Below are positions 3,748-30,977 of a DNA stretch of 30,977 bases, in pieces. Made by a program: the position numbers and the translations under genes. The notes beneath the pieces were generated by a model. That model was given only the letters and a program-made list of their open reading frames with translations, had not been told where the DNA came from and did no database searches. Numbering within the stretch: position 1 is the stretch's first letter; each line of letters opens with the position of its first letter. This stretch comes from a virus: IMG/VR virus record IMGVR_UViG_3300013018_000011, positions 1 to 30,977 of that record. The stretch is one strand, 5' to 3'.

Positions 3748-3757
3748 TATAAATAGT
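3748..3757 (-). promoter_or_regulatory. Late-promoter-like motif before gp25
   Basis: On the minus strand this reads ACTATTTATA, preceded by TTATA and followed by TTAAAA. It is one of six intergenic copies of the same sequence, here 14 nt upstream of the gp25-like ATG and 6 bp downstream of a terminator. I infer a phage-specific (probably late) promoter for the baseplate operon. A translation-linked element is the alternative. Confidence 0.65.
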
Positions 3758-8527: not shown

Positions 8528-8537
8528 TATAAATAGT
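8528..8537 (-). promoter_or_regulatory. Late-promoter-like motif before ParB-like gene
   Basis: ACTATTTATA on the minus strand, flanked by TTTAA and TATAAAA, 13 nt upstream of the ATG at 8514. Same sequence and spacing as at the gp25 and tail-fibre starts, so a late promoter is inferred for the 8514-7332 pair. Confidence 0.6.
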
Positions 8538-9051: not shown

Positions 9052-9438
9052 TTATTTATATGGTACTTCTTGAACTGTACCGTGAACAACTAATTTATTA
9101 TCAATATCTTTCCAATTATTTAATTTATTACTCATGAATGGTTTACCACCATTTCCCCTATTAACTGCTAATGTTATGTGAGGAATTTTATTCTTTGATG
9201 GATAACCATAAACACCAACAGCAACAACTTTATAATCAAATCCTAAACTATGAACAACTAATTTAACATTCTTACCAATATCTTCTTTTTTAAATGGTTT
9301 TGTCAATTCACCCATAGTAATGGTCATGTGATGTGCAATAATTTCAAAAGTATCTGGTATAAACTCTTCAAAATTATTTATTAATTCTTGTCTCGATTTA
9401 TCATCTAAAACAACTGCAGAATAAGAAATTTTACTCAT
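9052..9438 (-). CDS. 2H phosphoesterase (LigT/CPDase-like)
   Basis: A 128-residue single-domain protein with the two signature tetrapeptides of the 2H superfamily: 'HHMTITMG' (about 36-43) and 'PHITLAVN' (about 86-93). The two histidines cooperate in hydrolysing 2',3'-cyclic phosphates or 2'-5' linkages of RNA or cyclic nucleotides. The body 'GKNVKLVVHSLGFDYKVVAVGVYGYPS' is similar in pattern to the phosphodiesterase domain of fungal tRNA ligase. Its start overlaps the end of the large 2H/CCA fusion by 8 bp, and the HAD hydrolase follows 7 nt later, so the three are expressed together. It may open cyclic phosphate ends at RNA breaks or degrade a cyclic nucleotide signal; the sequence does not separate these. 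Confidence 0.85.
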   Translation of the reverse strand: MSKISYSAVVLDDKSRQELINNFEEFIPDTFEIIAHHMTITMGELTKPFKKEDIGKNVKLVVHSLGFDYKVVAVGVYGYPSKNKIPHITLAVNRGNGGKPFMSNKLNNWKDIDNKLVVHGTVQEVPYK

Positions 9439-11494
9439 TTTTATTATTTATAAATTCAACAATATTATTAAAATCATTATCTAACTTATCAGCATATATA
9501 TTGATTAACACTTTTCTCAACATATCACCAATTTCCTTACCTTTTAATCCTAATTTAATCAAATCATTACCATTAACAGCCAAATCTTTATTTGTTAAAG
9601 GATATTTACCGTTTTTTAATTCTTTTATCGTTTCATACAAATTATCCGGTAATATTTTACTATTCAATATGTTTGGTGTTATTTTATTTAAATTAAAAAC
9701 TAACACTCTATTTTCAACATTATTGTTTGAAACATTGTCATAAGCATAACTTAACCCTTTAATAATTTTATAATTATCCAGATCACCATCCAACTCATTT
9801 TTATAAAATTCTGCTGAATCATCAACCAAATTATGTGATAACATCCATACAAATTCGCCAATATTTTCAATTAAATCCCACTTATGACTTATTAATATTC
9901 CTTTATCATTACCAAAAATATTTTTTAATAAACCACTTTCTTTTAATAATTTAGCACCTACAAAAGGATTCCCCTTTGTAACAATTTTATCAAATTCAGT
10001 CAATATTCTCTCCGATGGAATTTCTTTTATTCTATGTGCATTATTTTGTATTGCTTTTAAAGTATTCTCTTCAATTTTAAAACCAAACCGAGCAGAAAAT
10101 TGGATTGAACGAAGCATTCTTAATGGATCATCAGAAAAAGCATCTGGATTAACCATTGAAATTTGTCTTTTCTTAATATCTTCTAACCCACCAAATGGAT
10201 CAATAATATTACCATCCAAATCTTTTGCTAATGCATTGATTGTTAAATCTCTTCTATAAAGGTCGTCTTCTATTGATAAATTATGGTCTGATTTAACTTC
10301 AAATCCTTTATGACCACCCTCTCCAGTAGGTTTTTCACTTCTAGGAATCGCAATATCTACATCCTCACCCTCATATCCTTCTGGTTTAAATTTTAATACT
10401 CCAAAACTTTTACCAACAGAATCCACTTTACCATATTTAGACACTATATTTTCAATACTATCCATTGGAACACCAGTTATTAGTATATCCAAATCCTTAG
10501 ATTCTTTACCTAATAATTCATCTCTAACAATACCCCCAACAGAATATATTTGACCACCCTTTTCTTGAATGTCTTTAATAAAAGGTAACTCATTTAATTT
10601 AATAGTATCTTCATTCATAATCGTTTTATTTTCATTTATGTCAAAAGTACTATTAATATTGTTACTAGCCAAATCTTTAAAATTATTTAACACATCATGA
10701 GTTTCATTATTACTGTTTTCTGATTTAGAATATTTAAAATATAAACCTTTTATTGTTAAGGGTTTATCAAAATCAAATTTATATTTATTACCTGTACCAG
10801 ATTTAACATATGCAATTGTCATATGTGGTTTATAATCAGGGTAATTATTTCTATAATCAAACTTTTTTGTTAATACGAAATTTAATTTATGTAATAATTC
10901 TGAATTAACATTAAATTTAACAACATCAAACTCATCATTTTCAAAACAATCAATACTTTCAATATTGACTTCAATATCTGGTTTAACTAATTTTTCAACA
11001 AGATTTAATACATCTTTTTCTGATATGTTATTATTAATACCATATAAAATAGTTACATGAGGTTCATCTTCAATACCATATCCTTCAACATTATATAAAT
11101 CATCATTTTTTATCTTACTAGTTATTATATTCCATTTGGGTATATCAAAAAATAACATCAAACAACCAGTATAAGTATTATTTTCCTCTTCATTAATAGT
11201 CGATAATTCTATATTGGATATATCACCTTGATTACAAGCAGCACTTGTATTACCCAAACCACCAATTTTACATTTGTTTTTAATATTAACTGCTTTAACA
11301 TTATCCATATATGATTTTTTTCTTTCATTTGTTAAATCACCAGTAAACCCGTGTTTTGTCCAATAAAGAGAACCACCATTTTCATCAACGTAATGAGGGG
11401 TTATAGCAAAACCACCATACCCCCCATCATTCTTAATTCGATCGTCTAACATCATATCGTTCTTAACAATCTCATCGTATTCATGTTTTTTCAT
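9431..11494 (-). CDS. 2H phosphoesterase fused to CCA-adding enzyme
   Basis: A 687-residue three-part protein. Residues 1-100 are of unknown function, with a 'KCKIGGLGNTSAACNQGDI' segment (74-92). Residues about 108-257 form a 2H phosphoesterase with 'PHVTILYG' (His146) and 'PHMTIAYV' (His224). Residues about 305-687 form a class II CCA-adding enzyme/poly(A) polymerase-type nucleotidyltransferase: 'VGGIVRDELLG' (319-329), metal-binding 'DLDIL' (Asp334, Asp336), 'RRDLTINALA' (414-423), 'DPFGG' (432-436), 'DDPLRMLRSIQFSARFGF' (455-472) and 'IPSERI' (492-497). It would add CCA to tRNA 3' ends while the 2H domain treats 2'/3' phosphates. The phage tRNA-Ser lacks an encoded CCA. A single gene product is likely, as there is no internal stop; the Met at about 293 could give a separate nucleotidyltransferase. 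Exact substrate specificity is unproven. Confidence 0.9.
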   Translation of the reverse strand: MKKHEYDEIVKNDMMLDDRIKNDGGYGGFAITPHYVDENGGSLYWTKHGFTGDLTNERKKSYMDNVKAVNIKNKCKIGGLGNTSAACNQGDISNIELSTINEEENNTYTGCLMLFFDIPKWNIITSKIKNDDLYNVEGYGIEDEPHVTILYGINNNISEKDVLNLVEKLVKPDIEVNIESIDCFENDEFDVVKFNVNSELLHKLNFVLTKKFDYRNNYPDYKPHMTIAYVKSGTGNKYKFDFDKPLTIKGLYFKYSKSENSNNETHDVLNNFKDLASNNINSTFDINENKTIMNEDTIKLNELPFIKDIQEKGGQIYSVGGIVRDELLGKESKDLDILITGVPMDSIENIVSKYGKVDSVGKSFGVLKFKPEGYEGEDVDIAIPRSEKPTGEGGHKGFEVKSDHNLSIEDDLYRRDLTINALAKDLDGNIIDPFGGLEDIKKRQISMVNPDAFSDDPLRMLRSIQFSARFGFKIEENTLKAIQNNAHRIKEIPSERILTEFDKIVTKGNPFVGAKLLKESGLLKNIFGNDKGILISHKWDLIENIGEFVWMLSHNLVDDSAEFYKNELDGDLDNYKIIKGLSYAYDNVSNNNVENRVLVFNLNKITPNILNSKILPDNLYETIKELKNGKYPLTNKDLAVNGNDLIKLGLKGKEIGDMLRKVLINIYADKLDNDFNNIVEFINNKNE

Positions 11495-12232: not shown

Positions 12233-12242
12233 TATAAATAGT
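12233..12242 (-). promoter_or_regulatory. Late-promoter-like motif before RNA-repair unit
   Basis: ACTATTTATA on the minus strand followed by AAAAAA, 22 nt before the ATG at 12210. The spacing is longer than the 13-16 nt at the other copies, but the core and the TTATA flank are identical to the gp25 copy. It would drive 12210, the 2H/CCA fusion, the small 2H gene and the HAD gene. Confidence 0.6.
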
Positions 12243-12251
12243 TATAAATTT

Positions 12252-13058
12252 TTATTTCTCTAAACTTTTTTTGAATAATTCTCTTTGTTTATCGAAAAAG
12301 GCTTTAGTAGGTCTTTTAAAATCATTATATTTAACAAACAATTCTTTTAAATTACCAATAACATTATCGTTATCATATTTATTTTTACTTTTTTCAGTTA
12401 CTGCAACAATATTACCATTTTCATTATAAACTAAATAATAATCTTTAGGCGATTTTTTTCTGTGTTTAGTAACTAATTCATAAAAATCGTTGATTTTCTT
12501 TTTAAAAATTTGTTTTTTATTTTTTTTATCATCATAAAAGTTCTTAAACTTTTTTGATTGTTTATCGAATTGACTTAATTTATCAGAATATTTATCTGGT
12601 TCTTTAATCGAAGATAATCCATCTACATTAATATTTGATTCATCTGGATCAATGGCATATATTATATCACTCATTTCTTTATCATCTGGGTTATAATTAG
12701 GTCGTATTTTTTTGAAATGTTTACCAGTTATTAACATAGATGTTATACCATCAACATAAAACAATCTCCATCCCGGCAATATATCATGATCGGGACGTGG
12801 TTTTCTAGTTATACCTCTATGACTATCACTAGCACCATTTTGTTGCCATGCTCTTAAAACAAGATTTCCAGCCTTTGATTTACCAATCAAAAATGGTTCA
12901 ATTGTTCTATAACCCTTTAAAGTTACCCCTGCTCCATCAGCACTTTTACCTTCAACACCTGCATAATAAATATAAATAACCTTACGATCTTTAATAGTAT
13001 CAATAAGATCATTTCTATTGACAACTTCTGTTAACAATATTTTATTATTTTTCATCAT
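12252..13058 (-). CDS. WYL-like domain protein with charged C-terminal region
   Basis: A 268-residue protein. Residues about 15-125 follow the pattern of the WYL (Sm-like) domain: 'LIDTIKDRKVIYIYYAG' , then 'GYRTIEPFLIGKSKAGNLVLRAWQ', and 'PGWRLFYVDGITSMLITGKHF', that is a strand with Tyr-Tyr, an R-x-I-x-P strand and a 'WRLFYVD-x-I' strand. WYL domains bind nucleic-acid or nucleotide ligands and occur in regulators and defence proteins. The rest (about 150-268) is very rich in Lys/Asp/Asn and contains 'YLVYNENGNIVAVTEK'. No helix-turn-helix is present, so it is not a standard WYL transcription regulator. Its ATG overlaps the TGA of the upstream homing endonuclease by 4 bp. Confidence 0.6.
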   Translation of the reverse strand: MMKNNKILLTEVVNRNDLIDTIKDRKVIYIYYAGVEGKSADGAGVTLKGYRTIEPFLIGKSKAGNLVLRAWQQNGASDSHRGITRKPRPDHDILPGWRLFYVDGITSMLITGKHFKKIRPNYNPDDKEMSDIIYAIDPDESNINVDGLSSIKEPDKYSDKLSQFDKQSKKFKNFYDDKKNKKQIFKKKINDFYELVTKHRKKSPKDYYLVYNENGNIVAVTEKSKNKYDNDNVIGNLKELFVKYNDFKRPTKAFFDKQRELFKKSLEK

Positions 13059-14707
13059 AATACCATTTCATATTTAATATTACCACAATCATATATCCAA
13101 TTATAATTATTATTCCTCATATTTTCAAATTCTGTTAAGTTTTTATCAAAATATTTCAATTGTTTTTTTAATTTATTTTTTTGGTATTTAATTCTACTCT
13201 CCAAATCAATAGTATTATTTTTAAAATAAAAATAATTTGGATTACTTATATGCACCTTTTTAAAACCATTTTTTAAATATAAATTATTATATAAATCAGT
13301 ATATCTTAAATCTGCAAAAGTTATTATTTTTTCACAATTATACTGTTTTATAAAATGCTTTAAAAGCTTACTAAAACCGCCAACAACAATGTATTTTGAT
13401 GCAAATCTATTTAAATCCCAATAATTAGAATTATTTTTAAAACCAATAACAGAAACCAATTCATCTTCATAAAACAATCCATATTTTACACTACACTTAT
13501 TATATCCTTGTATATGATATTTATTTAAAAATTCTTTAAATAAATTATTATTAATTTCAAATATTTTTGTTTTTCGTGCATAAATTTTTTTAGTGTTATT
13601 AATACCAATAATATGTTTTAATTTCGATTTAACAATTTCTTTTTTTAACAACCATTCATTTTCAAAAATAGAAACCAATCTAATATTATTTTTATATGCA
13701 TCCTCCATCTTATTTTTATGATAATATTTATCGTTTTTAAATAAATTTGAATGCCAATATAAACCACAATATTCTATCCCTATGTTTTTATCTGGTAATA
13801 AAATATCTATTTCTTTACCATCTAATATTTTTCTATTATTTCTTACTATTTTTCCATTGTAAATACTTTTAATATATTCATAAATATCATTTTCAGATTT
13901 TGATATTATTTGTCCACATTTTCCACAACCATGTCCAGATAAATGATCTCTAGGCGGTTGTTCAAAAATACCATGTATAGGACAAATTATATTAACTTTA
14001 ATATTACTATTAACATATTCAACCAACGAATAATCGTATTTATTATTGTGTCTTAAATTACCTTTTTTTATAAAAGAATCTAAATCATCTCTTTTAGCAT
14101 CAATAATATTTTTACTGGAACATTTAGGGCAATTACAACCTTTAATATGAAATTTAGGCGTTTGTTCAAAAACTCCATGTATTGGACATATAATTTTTAC
14201 TCTTTCATTATATGAATTATATTTAACCAACGAATAATCATATTTATCTTTATGTGTTTCTTTAAACTTCTTGATTATATCTTCATTAGTATGTTTTCTT
14301 TGATCATATGAACATTTTTTACATCCATTTGTCTTATAATGCCTAATTGGAGTTTGTTCAAAAACTCCATGTATTGGACATATAATTTTCACATTAGTTT
14401 TATTATTTACATACTCAACCAATGAATAATCATATTTATTATTATGTATTTTATTTGATTTATCTATAAAATATTTTTTCTCCTTATTTTTTTTTACTTT
14501 ATTATTTTTATATTTTGAACACTCCGTGCATTCATATCCATTCAATAAATCATTAGGAGTTTTAAAAAAAACTCCATGTATTGAGCATATAATTTTTACT
14601 TTAGTTTTACTATTAACATATTCAACTAAAGAATAATCATATTTATCACCATATTTATTTATTGCTTTTTCAATAAATGTCTTTTTTCTATCAATCATCT
14701 TTATCAC
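13055..14707 (-). CDS. Homing-endonuclease-like protein: four zinc repeats, EDxHD nuclease, GNAT-like tail
   Basis: A 550-residue multidomain protein. Four repeats of about 42 residues (22-63, 91-132, 155-196, 223-264) each read 'KYDYSLV-x-Y...IICPIHG-x-FEQTP...C-x2-C', giving a Cx2H/Cx2C zinc site; these are probably DNA-binding modules. Residues about 270-350 form a Vsr-like/EDxHD nuclease: 'EIDILLPDKNIGIEYCGLYWHS' region with Asp301, Glu312 and His319. Residues about 388-495 ('HIQGYNKCSVKYGLFYEDELVSVIGF', 'VVGGFSKLLKHF', 'ITFADLRYTDLYNNLYLKNGF') look like a GNAT/Mom-like fold. It sits tightly between two genes (3-nt gap and 4-bp overlap), as expected for a mobile gene that does not disturb its operon. 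Met4 at 14698 is an alternative start. Confidence 0.8.
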   Translation of the reverse strand: MIKMIDRKKTFIEKAINKYGDKYDYSLVEYVNSKTKVKIICSIHGVFFKTPNDLLNGYECTECSKYKNNKVKKNKEKKYFIDKSNKIHNNKYDYSLVEYVNNKTNVKIICPIHGVFEQTPIRHYKTNGCKKCSYDQRKHTNEDIIKKFKETHKDKYDYSLVKYNSYNERVKIICPIHGVFEQTPKFHIKGCNCPKCSSKNIIDAKRDDLDSFIKKGNLRHNNKYDYSLVEYVNSNIKVNIICPIHGIFEQPPRDHLSGHGCGKCGQIISKSENDIYEYIKSIYNGKIVRNNRKILDGKEIDILLPDKNIGIEYCGLYWHSNLFKNDKYYHKNKMEDAYKNNIRLVSIFENEWLLKKEIVKSKLKHIIGINNTKKIYARKTKIFEINNNLFKEFLNKYHIQGYNKCSVKYGLFYEDELVSVIGFKNNSNYWDLNRFASKYIVVGGFSKLLKHFIKQYNCEKIITFADLRYTDLYNNLYLKNGFKKVHISNPNYFYFKNNTIDLESRIKYQKNKLKKQLKYFDKNLTEFENMRNNNYNWIYDCGNIKYEMVL

Positions 14708-16272: not shown

Positions 16273-16282
16273 TATAAATAGT
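16273..16282 (-). promoter_or_regulatory. Late-promoter-like motif directly after polymerase stop
   Basis: ACTATTTATA on the minus strand with TTTAA before and TTAAAA after, 16 nt upstream of the ATG at 16256. It starts immediately after the DNA polymerase TAA (16283-16285), so the unit boundary is very tight and no terminator separates the polymerase gene from it. Confidence 0.65.
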
Positions 16283-27944: not shown

Positions 27945-27954
27945 TATAAATAGT
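27945..27954 (-). promoter_or_regulatory. Late-promoter-like motif before fibre operon
   Basis: ACTATTTATA on the minus strand, followed by TTAAAA, 15 nt before the ATG at 27929 and 8 bp past the terminator of the helicase unit. It supports 27929 as the start rather than 27962, which would place the motif inside the coding region. Confidence 0.65.
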
Positions 27955-28013: not shown

Positions 28014-28499
28014 TTATTCTCCTAGTAAATTTTTTAATTCATCTTTATTAAACACTTCACCATTATCTCCACTGTATTTATTTAACTTATCATCTAATGA
28101 TTCTGGTGTATCTGTTTTTTCAACAATCTTTTTAGACCTAGGTAAATCACCAGTAATTCTAATTTCCATAGTATCATTATTAAAAATTGAATCTTTAAAT
28201 ACATGCCCATCTTGTGCAAATCTAGCTTTTAATATCTGCATATTTGCTAATCCTGCAAGTTTTTGTTCTGAATTTTTAGCAATTGACATTAAAAAATGTG
28301 ATTTTTGTGCTCTTTTAATGTTACCACCCATTTGAGTATGGTCAACCAACTCAGCATTAAAACTAGAATTATGAGTGTATATATCATTAGCAAAAAACAT
28401 GTGTGTATCTTCAACCATAATATCTATCGTATCAATTTCATCATATTCTTCTATTGAAACAATTTCATCTTTAAAAAAATTAATCTTATTATCTTTCAT
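28014..28499 (-). CDS. 41: Split-intein C-fragment fused to C-terminal part of gp41-like helicase
   Basis: A 161-residue precursor. Residues 1-44 are an intein C-fragment: blocks F and G are visible as 'TIDIMVEDTHMFFANDIYTHN', with the penultimate His43 and Asn44 that cyclises. Ser45 is the +1 nucleophile. Residues 45-161 are the helicase C-terminus ('SSFNAELVDHTQMGGNIKRAQKS', then 'KARFAQDGHVF'), matching the end of the DnaB/gp41 motor domain after the Gln-x-x-Asn-Arg motif. After trans-splicing with the product of the gene at 29766 the join would be GNR-SSFNAE. It starts 1 nt after the endonuclease stop. Confidence 0.9.
   Translation of the reverse strand: MKDNKINFFKDEIVSIEEYDEIDTIDIMVEDTHMFFANDIYTHNSSFNAELVDHTQMGGNIKRAQKSHFLMSIAKNSEQKLAGLANMQILKARFAQDGHVFKDSIFNNDTMEIRITGDLPRSKKIVEKTDTPESLDDKLNKYSGDNGEVFNKDELKNLLGE
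28368..28499 (-). other. Intein C-fragment coding segment (44 aa)
   Basis: Codes for residues 1-44 of the 28014 protein, ending THN with Asn44 at 28368-28370; the first extein codon is Ser45 at 28365-28367. In length and end pattern it resembles the C-half of the known gp41 split inteins, about 37-45 residues long. Confidence 0.9.
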
Positions 28500-28500
28500 A

Positions 28501-29709
28501 TTAATTATTTATAAATTTTAAACATTTATTAACAACATTCTCTTTATTTTTTAAATATTCTTTTTCTGGAATTCTTAGTAATTTATAACCCTTCTTTTCA
28601 TATATTTTATTTTTTATAATATCTTTCTTTTTTGTTTCATTTAATGAATGCCAATATTCACCATCAAATTCAATAATAATATTATTTAATTTGAAGTCTG
28701 CAAATATAATATATTCTTCATCTCTAACAAAATATTCTTTATTCTTTTCGGCAAAATAACAATCATTTTTTTGTTGATCTGTTAAATGATTATATATACT
28801 CCAAAATAATTCTTGTGAAATTTTAGAATATTTATCATTAAAGTTGTTTCTTTTTAAGATTAAATCCTGATATTTCTTTTTTCCAATACTTTCACCATAT
28901 TTTTCAATATATCCATCTTTAGAATTAATATATGATATTTTCTTTGTATATTCATTATATTTTTCATTACCCTTTTCAGCACCATATCGTTTTATAAAAC
29001 TTTTTAAACTAGTTTTATTCATACTTTCTTTATATTCATTCCATTTTTTTATTCCTCTTTCCTTACCATATTTATCAATATAATATTTTTTTGAATACCT
29101 ATATTCATACCAAGAATATTTTTTATTGTATCTAAACAATCCTTCTTCCTCACCATATATTCTTACGAAATCTTGTAATGTTGATCCATTACTATATTTT
29201 TTACCATTTTTTTTATTTGTTTTATATGTTTGACTTCTTTTATTAACATATTCATACCACTTTTTTTCACCATTTTTATCACCATATCTTATAATAAAAT
29301 TATCCAACGAACAACCATTATATTTATTTTTATCTTTCCATTTTTTTCTTCCATCTATTTCACCAAATTTTTTTATATATTTTGATAATGTTTGTGTTGT
29401 TAAATTATTTCTATCATTAAATAATTTCTGACCATATTTTTCACCAAATCTTATTTCATGTGAATATAAAGAAGATGAATCCCTGAATAATTTTGTTTTA
29501 ATTATATCTATTCTATCAACCCAAGAGATATCTTTAGGTGATACATCATATTTAATGAAACCTTTTATTGTTTTTAATTGATACCTTATTTCATGATTAT
29601 TATATTTCTTCAATATTTTATTTATTTCAGGTATATCTTTTTCTCTAAATTCAACACCCTTCATTTCTTTTAAAGAAAATAATTCATTTATAGTATAATG
29701 TTTAGCCAT
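28501..29709 (-). CDS. Free-standing homing endonuclease nested between intein halves
   Basis: A 402-residue protein counted from Met at 29707-29709; the in-frame ATG at 29718 is only 4 nt from the promoter motif, whereas 29709 gives a 13-nt spacing like the other copies. Residue numbers here count from the 29718 Met. Seven copies of an 'FI-x-RYG-x3-G-x-KKW-x-EY' motif occur between 88 and 286 (for example 141-157, 212-229, 241-257), probably DNA-reading modules. The C-terminal nuclease is Vsr-like/EDxHD: 'FADFKLNNIIIEFDGEYWHS' with Asp341, Glu350 and His357, then 'KKGYKLLRIPEKEY'. It sits between the two halves of the split helicase, so it would be expected to cut uninserted helicase alleles. 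Confidence 0.85.
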   Translation of the reverse strand: MAKHYTINELFSLKEMKGVEFREKDIPEINKILKKYNNHEIRYQLKTIKGFIKYDVSPKDISWVDRIDIIKTKLFRDSSSLYSHEIRFGEKYGQKLFNDRNNLTTQTLSKYIKKFGEIDGRKKWKDKNKYNGCSLDNFIIRYGDKNGEKKWYEYVNKRSQTYKTNKKNGKKYSNGSTLQDFVRIYGEEEGLFRYNKKYSWYEYRYSKKYYIDKYGKERGIKKWNEYKESMNKTSLKSFIKRYGAEKGNEKYNEYTKKISYINSKDGYIEKYGESIGKKKYQDLILKRNNFNDKYSKISQELFWSIYNHLTDQQKNDCYFAEKNKEYFVRDEEYIIFADFKLNNIIIEFDGEYWHSLNETKKKDIIKNKIYEKKGYKLLRIPEKEYLKNKENVVNKCLKFINN

Positions 29710-29722
29710 ATTATTCATTTAT

Positions 29723-29732
29723 TATAAATAGT
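29723..29732 (-). promoter_or_regulatory. Late-promoter-like motif before nested endonuclease
   Basis: ACTATTTATA on the minus strand, the sixth copy, with a less conserved flank (GTCGT before, ATAAAT after). It lies 13 nt before the ATG at 29709. It would let the endonuclease, and possibly the downstream helicase C-fragment, be transcribed apart from the helicase N-fragment. Confidence 0.6.
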
Positions 29733-29765
29733 ACGACTAAACATTATTTTTGTGGGCTGTTCATC

Positions 29766-30977
29766 CTATTTTTTCACAGATAAACTATCACCAACTTTTA
29801 AACCATTATTAATTGATTTTAACGTATCACCAACAGGGAAGTTATGTTTTCCAGAACAAATAATTTCTTTACCACTCTTGGTTTTAATCTTAAATGTTTT
29901 CTGTTTTTTTATTGGATAAATATATTGAACATTTTTATAACCTTCTTTGGTTAAGATTTTATCACCTATATTTAATTCCTTTATTTTTATTTTTCCCTTA
30001 TCTTCAACATCAACAATTGTATTTAAATCAAGACATCTATTACCCTGCACTGCTGTCCACATAGGAATATCATACTTTGAAGCCATTGAAATAAACATTT
30101 TAATAATTGCCAATTCTGCTTGATTTTGATCAACAGCTTTTTTATGTGATTCTAAACAATCCAAATAATCTAAAACAATAATATCAAATTTATAACCAAA
30201 TTTCTTTTGATAATTATCAATCCAATTTTTTACATCTACTAAGGTTGTTTCATCTTCATCAAATTTTTTGATTACTAATTTATTCTTGATTTTTTGTACT
30301 TTATCATTAACAAGAGCATAAGCTTCATCTTTTCGATCTTGTAATTCTGATAAAGGTATTTTTGACCATATAGTAAAATGCTTCCTTTTTATTTCATCAG
30401 GAGTATCCTCAAAAATGATTTGTAAGACGTTTTTACCTTCTTCTAATGCAGAGTTGGCTATCTTGGTTAAGAATGTGCTTTTTCCAACCCCTGAAGGGGC
30501 TAAAACCAATCCAACTTCACCTTTACCTAATCCACCTCCAGTAACATTGTCTATACCATATACACCTGTTGGAATAGTCTCTCTAAATTTCTTATCAAAA
30601 GCAGCTTTAATATTATCAGTTAATAATACACCATAATCATTATCATCACCAATATTGTTAATTTTAGAGAATTGTTCTTCGATATGAAATATATTCTTTT
30701 TTGATTTAATTTCACCTGTTTTTACTTTTCTTAAAATATCTTCTGAGATTTTTCGATATTCTTGTTGTTTAATAAAAACAAATGTTTCCTTCTGCACTAT
30801 ATCCCCATCATAAGGTATTTTTTGATTTAAAACACTATCATTCCAATATTGTATTTGTTTAATTATTTCAGTTAATACTTCTTCTTCAATACTATTTTTA
30901 GAATTATATATCTTTAGAGCATGATAAATACTTTTATTTTCCAAATTCGGAATCATTTCATATTCATCACTATATTG
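29766..30977 (-). CDS. 41: gp41-like replicative helicase N-terminal part fused to split-intein N-fragment, 5' end missing
   Basis: The frame is open to the right edge (7 codons before the Met at 30956), and Walker A is about 40 residues closer to that Met than in T4 gp41, so the start probably lies outside. Counting from that Met: linker/N-terminal domain 1-110, Walker A 'APSGVGKST' (153-161), Walker B 'DIIVLDYLD' (258-266), then 'TAVQGNR' (301-307), the DnaB/gp41 Gln-x-x-Arg site. Cys308 begins the intein N-fragment (308-396), with block B 'KEIICSGKHNF' (SxxH) and a 'GLKVGDSLSVKK' end followed by TAG. Motor function therefore depends on trans-splicing with the 28014 product. Confidence 0.9.
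   Translation of the reverse strand, partial: QYSDEYEMIPNLENKSIYHALKIYNSKNSIEEEVLTEIIKQIQYWNDSVLNQKIPYDGDIVQKETFVFIKQQEYRKISEDILRKVKTGEIKSKKNIFHIEEQFSKINNIGDDNDYGVLLTDNIKAAFDKKFRETIPTGVYGIDNVTGGGLGKGEVGLVLAPSGVGKSTFLTKIANSALEEGKNVLQIIFEDTPDEIKRKHFTIWSKIPLSELQDRKDEAYALVNDKVQKIKNKLVIKKFDEDETTLVDVKNWIDNYQKKFGYKFDIIVLDYLDCLESHKKAVDQNQAELAIIKMFISMASKYDIPMWTAVQGNRCLDLNTIVDVEDKGKIKIKELNIGDKILTKEGYKNVQYIYPIKKQKTFKIKTKSGKEIICSGKHNFPVGDTLKSINNGLKVGDSLSVKK
29769..30035 (-). other. Intein N-fragment coding segment (89 aa)
   Basis: Codes for Cys308-Lys396 of the helicase N-half, starting at codon 30033-30035 (TGT) and ending just before the TAG. It begins CLDL, keeps the block-B His (SGKH) and is 89 residues long, very near the 88 residues I recall for the gp41-1 N-half. 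It matches the C-fragment at 28368-28499. Confidence 0.9.

What the first reader, a model, noticed from the sequence alone, without database searches (positions are those of the whole stretch)
28014..30977. Fractured gp41 helicase: split intein with a homing endonuclease between the halves
Seen: the helicase motor domain stops after 'TAVQGNR', a Cys-starting 89-residue intein N-half follows and ends at a TAG. An endonuclease gene comes next, then a 44-residue intein C-half ending THN, and then Ser-started helicase C-terminus. Known: split inteins gp41-1 and gp41-8 in fractured phage helicases, described mainly from metagenomes (Dassa and colleagues, 2009), show the same plan. Inference: this is a further instance in an assembled Bacteroidota-phage-like genome, with a potentially new fast split intein, inserted right after the Gln-x-x-Asn-Arg site.
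Basis: partly seen in the sequence, partly recalled or inferred. Interest (0 to 1): 0.85.

Follow-up and report, generated by a model that had tools for sequence, protein, structure and literature searches.

The report
Split-intein phage helicase with embedded nuclease
A virus's DNA-unwinding enzyme is encoded as two separate genes whose protein products are probably glued together by a self-cutting "split intein", with a selfish DNA-cutting gene sitting between them; this arrangement is already known, but the many relatives found here catch the element in every stage, from intact to decayed to re-fused.

Summary
On the minus strand, a gp41/DnaB-type helicase is interrupted after TAVQGNR by an 89-residue Cys1 intein N-half (TAG at 29766-29768). 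A 405-codon endonuclease gene follows, then a 44-residue C-half (…THN) and the Ser-started helicase end. Both halves match the gp41-1 intein (IntN E=1.8e-14; IntC family profile E=1.8e-10). The nuclease domain matches I-Bth0305I (EDxHD/Vsr). At least 28 IMG/VR relatives lack the intein and join the two helicase pieces exactly at this site. Many independent contigs carry the same split, so it is not a sequencing error. It is a new member of Dassa's fractured-gene/split-intein kind. One correction: the contig ends inside the helicase, about 57 residues short, so the spliced product is nearer 488 than 424 residues.

Beyond the finding, 68 distinct relatives form a series: split with HEN (43), split with a HEN remnant or disrupted HEN (9), split without HEN (8) and contiguous (8). 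The contiguous ones are not one clade (AU p=0.004), so splitting and/or re-fusing happened repeatedly. Diverged helicases carry near-identical cassettes with sharp edges, a homing signature. The nuclease gene has its own promoter-like motif. No splicing or cleavage was tested.

The parts
30036..30977 (-). helicase N-extein (gp41/DnaB-like, N-terminus cut off by contig end), ends TAVQGNR
   Evidence: PHROG 19 DnaB-like replicative helicase E=1.6e-38; DnaB_C Pfam E=1.3e-14; spliced form 53-58% identical to relatives
29769..30035 (-). split intein N-half (IntN), 89 aa, Cys1
   Evidence: phmmer to gp41-1 intein 6riz/6qaz E=1.8e-14; Pfam Intein_splicing and NCBIfam intein_Nterm below cut-off; 20 invariant columns in 12 relatives
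29766..29768 (-). TAG stop ending the N-half gene
   Evidence: sequence; the N-half also ends at a stop in many independent relatives
29723..29732 (-). promoter-like motif ACTATTTATA just upstream of the endonuclease gene
   Evidence: 7 copies in window against 0.65 expected, 0 of 100 shuffles reach 7; 6 lie upstream of gene starts; TATTTATA in 16 of 32 spacers, the window's included
28501..29718 (-). homing endonuclease gene (405 aa): helix-pair repeat array plus EDxHD/Vsr-type nuclease domain
   Evidence: A3 profile to 3r3p I-Bth0305I E=2.8e-5; AlphaFold mean pLDDT 83.8; Foldseek to Aes123 VSR endonuclease E=3.6e-14
28846..29469 (-). HEN repeat array, about seven helix pairs (YGxxxGxxKW type), unnamed in Pfam/NCBIfam
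   Evidence: model secondary structure; motif scan finds six clear copies; length varies among relatives at the same site
28504..28830 (-). HEN nuclease domain (YSKISQELF...DFKLNNIIIEFDGEYWH...LRIPE)
28368..28499 (-). split intein C-half (IntC), 44 aa, ATG just after the HEN stop, ends YTHN
   Evidence: NCBIfam intein_Cterm above cut-off; A2 profile to gp41-1 E=1.8e-10
28014..28367 (-). helicase C-extein, Ser+1, 117 aa plus stop
   Evidence: joined directly to the N-extein in at least 28 intein-less IMG/VR helicase loci

Best explanation
This is a replicative helicase (gp41/DnaB type) broken into two genes by a mobile IntN-HEN-IntC cassette. The two precursors bind through the intein halves and splice in trans: Cys1 attacks, Ser+1 accepts, the C-terminal Asn cyclises. 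This restores one continuous helicase at the R|S junction of its conserved Q-x-x-R motif. The separate EDxHD-type nuclease between the halves cuts uninterrupted alleles so that the cassette is copied in during mixed infection, and it probably has its own promoter. Shown: homology, anatomy, the empty sites, and homing-like cassette transfer in relatives. Inferred: splicing, cleavage and promoter activity.
For: IntN and IntC match the gp41-1 split intein. C1 and S+1 are invariant in the 12 aligned relatives, with the final Asn. At least 28 intein-less loci join the exteins at exactly this point, and the spliced window helicase aligns through the junction to intact relatives at 53-58% identity. 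The same split occurs in 60 of 68 distinct inteins at this site. IntN and IntC have dN/dS about 0.02-0.2 in most close pairs. The HEN nuclease domain matches I-Bth0305I. L042/L154: cassette 85-100% identical against 45-85% in the exteins, edges at both junctions; dS 0.25-0.32 against about 1.0. L086/L092: HEN dS 0.09 against 1.0-1.7 in the exteins. ACTATTTATA upstream of the HEN.
Against: No biochemical test. The homing signature is from relatives; no near-identical relative of the window itself was found (best intein identity 66%). HEN target specificity is unknown. In some close pairs the HEN is lost or broken while the split helicase is kept, so HEN activity is not needed for helicase function and the window's HEN activity is unproven. 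Correlation of intein with extein distances is also high (Mantel 0.84), so much of the history may be vertical.
Confidence: 0.93

Rival explanations
1. The nuclease is a separate free-standing element that homes into contiguous mini-inteins and fractures them. The HEN moves, and the intein is its target, not its vehicle.
For: Contiguous HEN-less versions of the same intein exist at the same site, some with IntN about 97% identical in DNA to split+HEN versions. L086/L092 HEN dS (0.09) is lower than intein dS (0.31-0.37), as if the HEN were the focus of conversion.
Against: L042/L154 shows equal dS for HEN and intein with breaks at the extein junctions, so whole cassettes also move. HEN and intein distances agree (Mantel r 0.90). 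Several contiguous forms sit at tips within split+HEN clades, although the root is not known.
Confidence: 0.25
2. Splicing is dead or inefficient and the two helicase pieces work as a non-covalent two-subunit enzyme.
For: No splicing assay is available; split forms persist after HEN loss.
Against: Catalytic residues and intein blocks are conserved, with IntN and IntC under purifying selection. The junction lies in a conserved core motif. Contiguous relatives would need to splice to restore the same core.
Confidence: 0.05
3. Sequencing or assembly error, or a pseudogene: one contiguous intein gene falsely broken.
For: None beyond the existence of contiguous relatives.
Against: A 1.2-kb nuclease gene lies between the halves. 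The same layout recurs in tens of independent contigs with both frames intact.
Confidence: 0.01

Closest known systems
gp41-1 split intein (PDB 6riz/6qaz; fractured genes, Dassa et al. 2009)
   Same: Same host protein type (from knowledge), Cys1/Ser+1, IntN 88-89 aa and short IntC; sequence match E=1.8e-14 for IntN.
   Different: Insertion differs: gp41-1 follows TRSGY (PMC7895425), which by comparison with relatives such as L121 (TNR|SGFSSSDL) lies three residues downstream of the window's R|S site. Sequence is diverged.
gp41-8 split intein
   Same: Gp41-family split intein. From memory its exteins are SQLNR and SAVEE, i.e. the same R|S position; relative L157 reads SQLNR...SAVEE at this site.
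   Different: The gp41-8 sequence itself was not compared. L157 carries a different HEN type, not the repeat-array type of the window.
Aeromonas phage Aes123/Aes508 VSR endonuclease and PolB split intein
   Same: The endonuclease is homologous to the window HEN (tblastn 1e-11 to 9e-14 over residues 216-403; Foldseek 3.6e-14); Aes123 PolB carries a split intein (PMC11923092).
   Different: Host gene is DNA polymerase, and the split intein is cysteine-less (PMC11923092). That the endonuclease lies between the PolB halves is from memory, not checked.
I-Bth0305I (EDxHD homing endonuclease)
   Same: Nuclease domain homologous (E=2.8e-5; Foldseek prob 0.99).
   Different: A mobile intron protein (PDB title), not split-intein associated; no YGxxxGxxKW repeat array is known for it.

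Membership tests
Fractured gene with split intein (Dassa 2009 type) | Two separate reading frames, one ending in IntN and the other starting with IntC, of one conserved host gene | tested here: met
Fractured gene with split intein (Dassa 2009 type) | Intein halves homologous to known split inteins with conserved nucleophiles and terminal Asn | tested here: met
Fractured gene with split intein (Dassa 2009 type) | Intein-less alleles with the exteins joined at the same point | tested here: met
   (L004-L032)
Fractured gene with split intein (Dassa 2009 type) | Free-standing EDxHD/Vsr-type endonuclease ORF between the halves | tested here: met
   Dassa's own HEN sequences could not be compared (paper not held)
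Fractured gene with split intein (Dassa 2009 type) | Protein trans-splicing activity | not testable with these tools
   needs expression and mass spectrometry
gp41-1 intein (as the same allele) | Insertion after TRSGY in the helicase | tested here: not met
   window insertion is after QGNR, three residues upstream by comparison with L121 (PMC7895425)
EDxHD homing endonuclease | Nuclease domain homologous to I-Bth0305I with conserved acidic/His core | tested here: met
   (homology and conserved D, E, D, H columns; residue-by-residue catalytic match not tested)
EDxHD homing endonuclease | Site-specific cleavage of the intein-less allele | not testable with these tools
   needs a cleavage assay

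The most novel reading that the evidence does not exclude
Fracturing is reversible and recurrent. In this phage helicase lineage the same intein passes repeatedly between split+HEN, split with decayed HEN, split without HEN, and contiguous cis-splicing forms, in step with gain, decay and loss of the nuclease, while the cassette spreads by homing between diverged helicases. The repeat-array EDxHD enzyme would be a distinct homing endonuclease subfamily with a modular DNA-reading array.
Probability: 0.55. Interest if true: 0.6.

Novelty: new member of a known kind. Interest (0 to 1): 0.42.

Why it matters
The window adds a diverged split intein close to the fast gp41-1 kind, useful as a candidate orthogonal tool. 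More important, its relatives give a series (intact, decayed, absent nuclease; split and contiguous intein) for how genes break and re-join around a homing endonuclease, which makes the origin of split inteins testable with natural allele pairs.

Tried and rejected
The N-half protein as a scan query found no relatives because its peptide patterns were too specific; the IntN alignment worked. The intein halves had no hit in 50,697 named phage records, so the close family is known here only from metagenomic contigs. DNA search gave one 70-base hit. A genome-contig scan gave one weak nuclease hit. Sequencing error was rejected. TATAAATA (T4 late promoter) was tested and is not enriched in the window; TATTTATA preceded by AC is. 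The 8fje match to the repeat array is weak (best stretch 0.1 on its own) and repetitive, not used. Dassa 2009 itself is not held, so comparison with its HEN sequences is indirect. PDB Foldseek gave no confident fold for the repeat array. The contiguous forms other than L002 and L148 could not be rejected as one clade (p=0.22), so the number of independent events is not pinned down.

Full report
What is there. The window is a 30,977-base virus record from IMG/VR, 25% G+C. Almost all genes are on the minus strand, with baseplate wedge, DNA polymerase and DNA helicase matches of T4-like kind. At its right end the replicative helicase is in two genes. The first runs off the contig and ends with helicase sequence TAVQGNR followed by 89 residues beginning with Cys and a TAG. 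After a 47-base spacer comes a 405-codon gene, and directly after its stop a 161-codon gene begins whose first 44 residues end in YTHN, followed by SSFNAELV.

Identity of the parts. IntN matches gp41-1 intein structures over its whole length (E=1.8e-14). A profile of IntC relatives matches gp41-1 (E=1.8e-10), and the C-half passes the NCBIfam intein_Cterm cut-off. The helicase matches DnaB-like replicative helicases. The middle gene's last 110 residues match the EDxHD homing endonuclease I-Bth0305I (E=2.8e-5; Foldseek prob 0.99). Its best match among viral models is the VSR endonuclease of Aeromonas phage Aes123 (E=3.6e-14), a phage whose PolB carries a split intein (PMC11923092). The N-terminal part of the nuclease holds a chain of about seven helix pairs with the signature YGxxxGxxKW, not named in Pfam or NCBIfam. 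The enzymes found at this helicase site run from 279 to 458 aa, with much of the difference in this array, so it is probably a modular DNA-reading array; this is inference.

Empty and occupied sites. Of 32 helicase loci found with the C-half, at least 28 have no insertion and join the two helicase pieces exactly where the window is interrupted; examples read QTNR|SGFNAEL (L004) and QSNR|SGFDAEI (L019). This gives the boundaries without any splicing assay. The site lies in the conserved Q-x-x-R element of the helicase (family knowledge). gp41-1 follows TRSGY (PMC7895425), three residues downstream by comparison with L121 (TNR|SGFSSSDL), so the window is a neighbouring, not identical, insertion. 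L157 reads SQLNR...SAVEE at the window's site, which from memory is the gp41-8 junction.

A series of states. Profiles of IntN, IntC and HEN over all fetched loci give 68 distinct inteins at this site, the window included: 42 split with this HEN type, 1 split with another HEN type (L157), 9 split with a HEN remnant or disrupted HEN, 8 split with no HEN, 8 contiguous in one frame with no HEN. Close pairs catch the steps. L147 and L145 are 97-100% identical throughout except for a deletion of roughly 940 bases within the HEN. L137 and L138 are about 99% identical in the flanks, one with HEN and one without. L092 (split+HEN) and L087 (contiguous) have IntN 97% identical in DNA. On the intein tree the contiguous forms need five changes; holding all eight in one clade is rejected (AU p=0.0036), while six of them without L002 and L148 cannot be rejected as one clade (p=0.22). 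So more than one change between split and contiguous occurred; direction is not proven because the root is unknown, and the alignment is short (133 columns).

Mobility. In L042/L154 the exteins are 45-85% identical while the intein and HEN are 85-100% identical, with breaks at both extein junctions; dS is 0.25-0.32 in the cassette and about 1.0 in the exteins. In L086/L092, dS is 0.09 (HEN), 0.31-0.37 (intein), 1.0-1.7 (exteins). The reverse also occurs: L129 and L098 have exteins 99% identical in protein but cassettes only 67% (HEN) and 82% (intein) identical. These are the marks expected of homing. IntN and IntC show dN/dS about 0.02-0.2 in most close pairs and HEN about 0.16-0.31, so all are under selection. 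These pairs are relatives of the window, not the window itself.

Expression. ACTATTTATA lies just upstream of the HEN and of five other gene starts in the window (7 copies in all, 0.65 expected, none of 100 shuffles). TATTTATA recurs in the IntN-HEN spacer of 16 of 32 distinct loci, the window included; these are related sequences, so the count is not of independent events. T4's intron endonuclease I-TevI is likewise controlled at its own late promoter (PMC3943268). That the motif is a promoter is inference.

Judgement. The finding is real and correctly read. It is a new, diverged member of a known kind. The added value is the comparative series and the homing signature in its family.

Noticed in passing
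window 3748-3757, 8528-8537, 12233-12242, 16273-16282, 27945-27954, 29723-29732 (-): Ten-base motif ACTATTTATA upstream of six gene starts (7 in window against 0.65 expected); probable phage (late?) promoter unlike T4's TATAAATA.
   Followed up: partly
window 13055-14707 (-): Free-standing endonuclease with DUF723/DUF4379-like repeats (PHROG 559/3339), resembling the CapR/DUF4379/DUF723 plus EDxHD/Vsr endonucleases described as a large unrecognised outgroup in PMC12350094; a similar-looking gene sits inside the split intein of L157.
   Followed up: partly
L055 943-3060, also L035, L030, L033: Relatives carry a second insertion at the Walker A motif (GVGK|T); in L055 it is an in-frame intein starting with Glu, with features suggesting a class 3 intein (no N-terminal nucleophile), in the same helicase as the split intein.
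   Followed up: no
window, upstream of 30 gene starts: Only 1 of 30 starts has a Shine-Dalgarno-like stretch; upstream regions are A/T-rich, as in phages of hosts that do not rely on Shine-Dalgarno sites.
   Followed up: partly
window 9431-11494 (-): One protein matching both a PHROG RNA-ligase family (residues 142-257) and tRNA nucleotidyltransferase (residues 314-528): an apparent fusion.
   Followed up: no
L145 / L147: Pair 97-100% identical in which one HEN has lost roughly 940 bases while both intein halves are intact: HEN decay caught in progress.
   Followed up: yes
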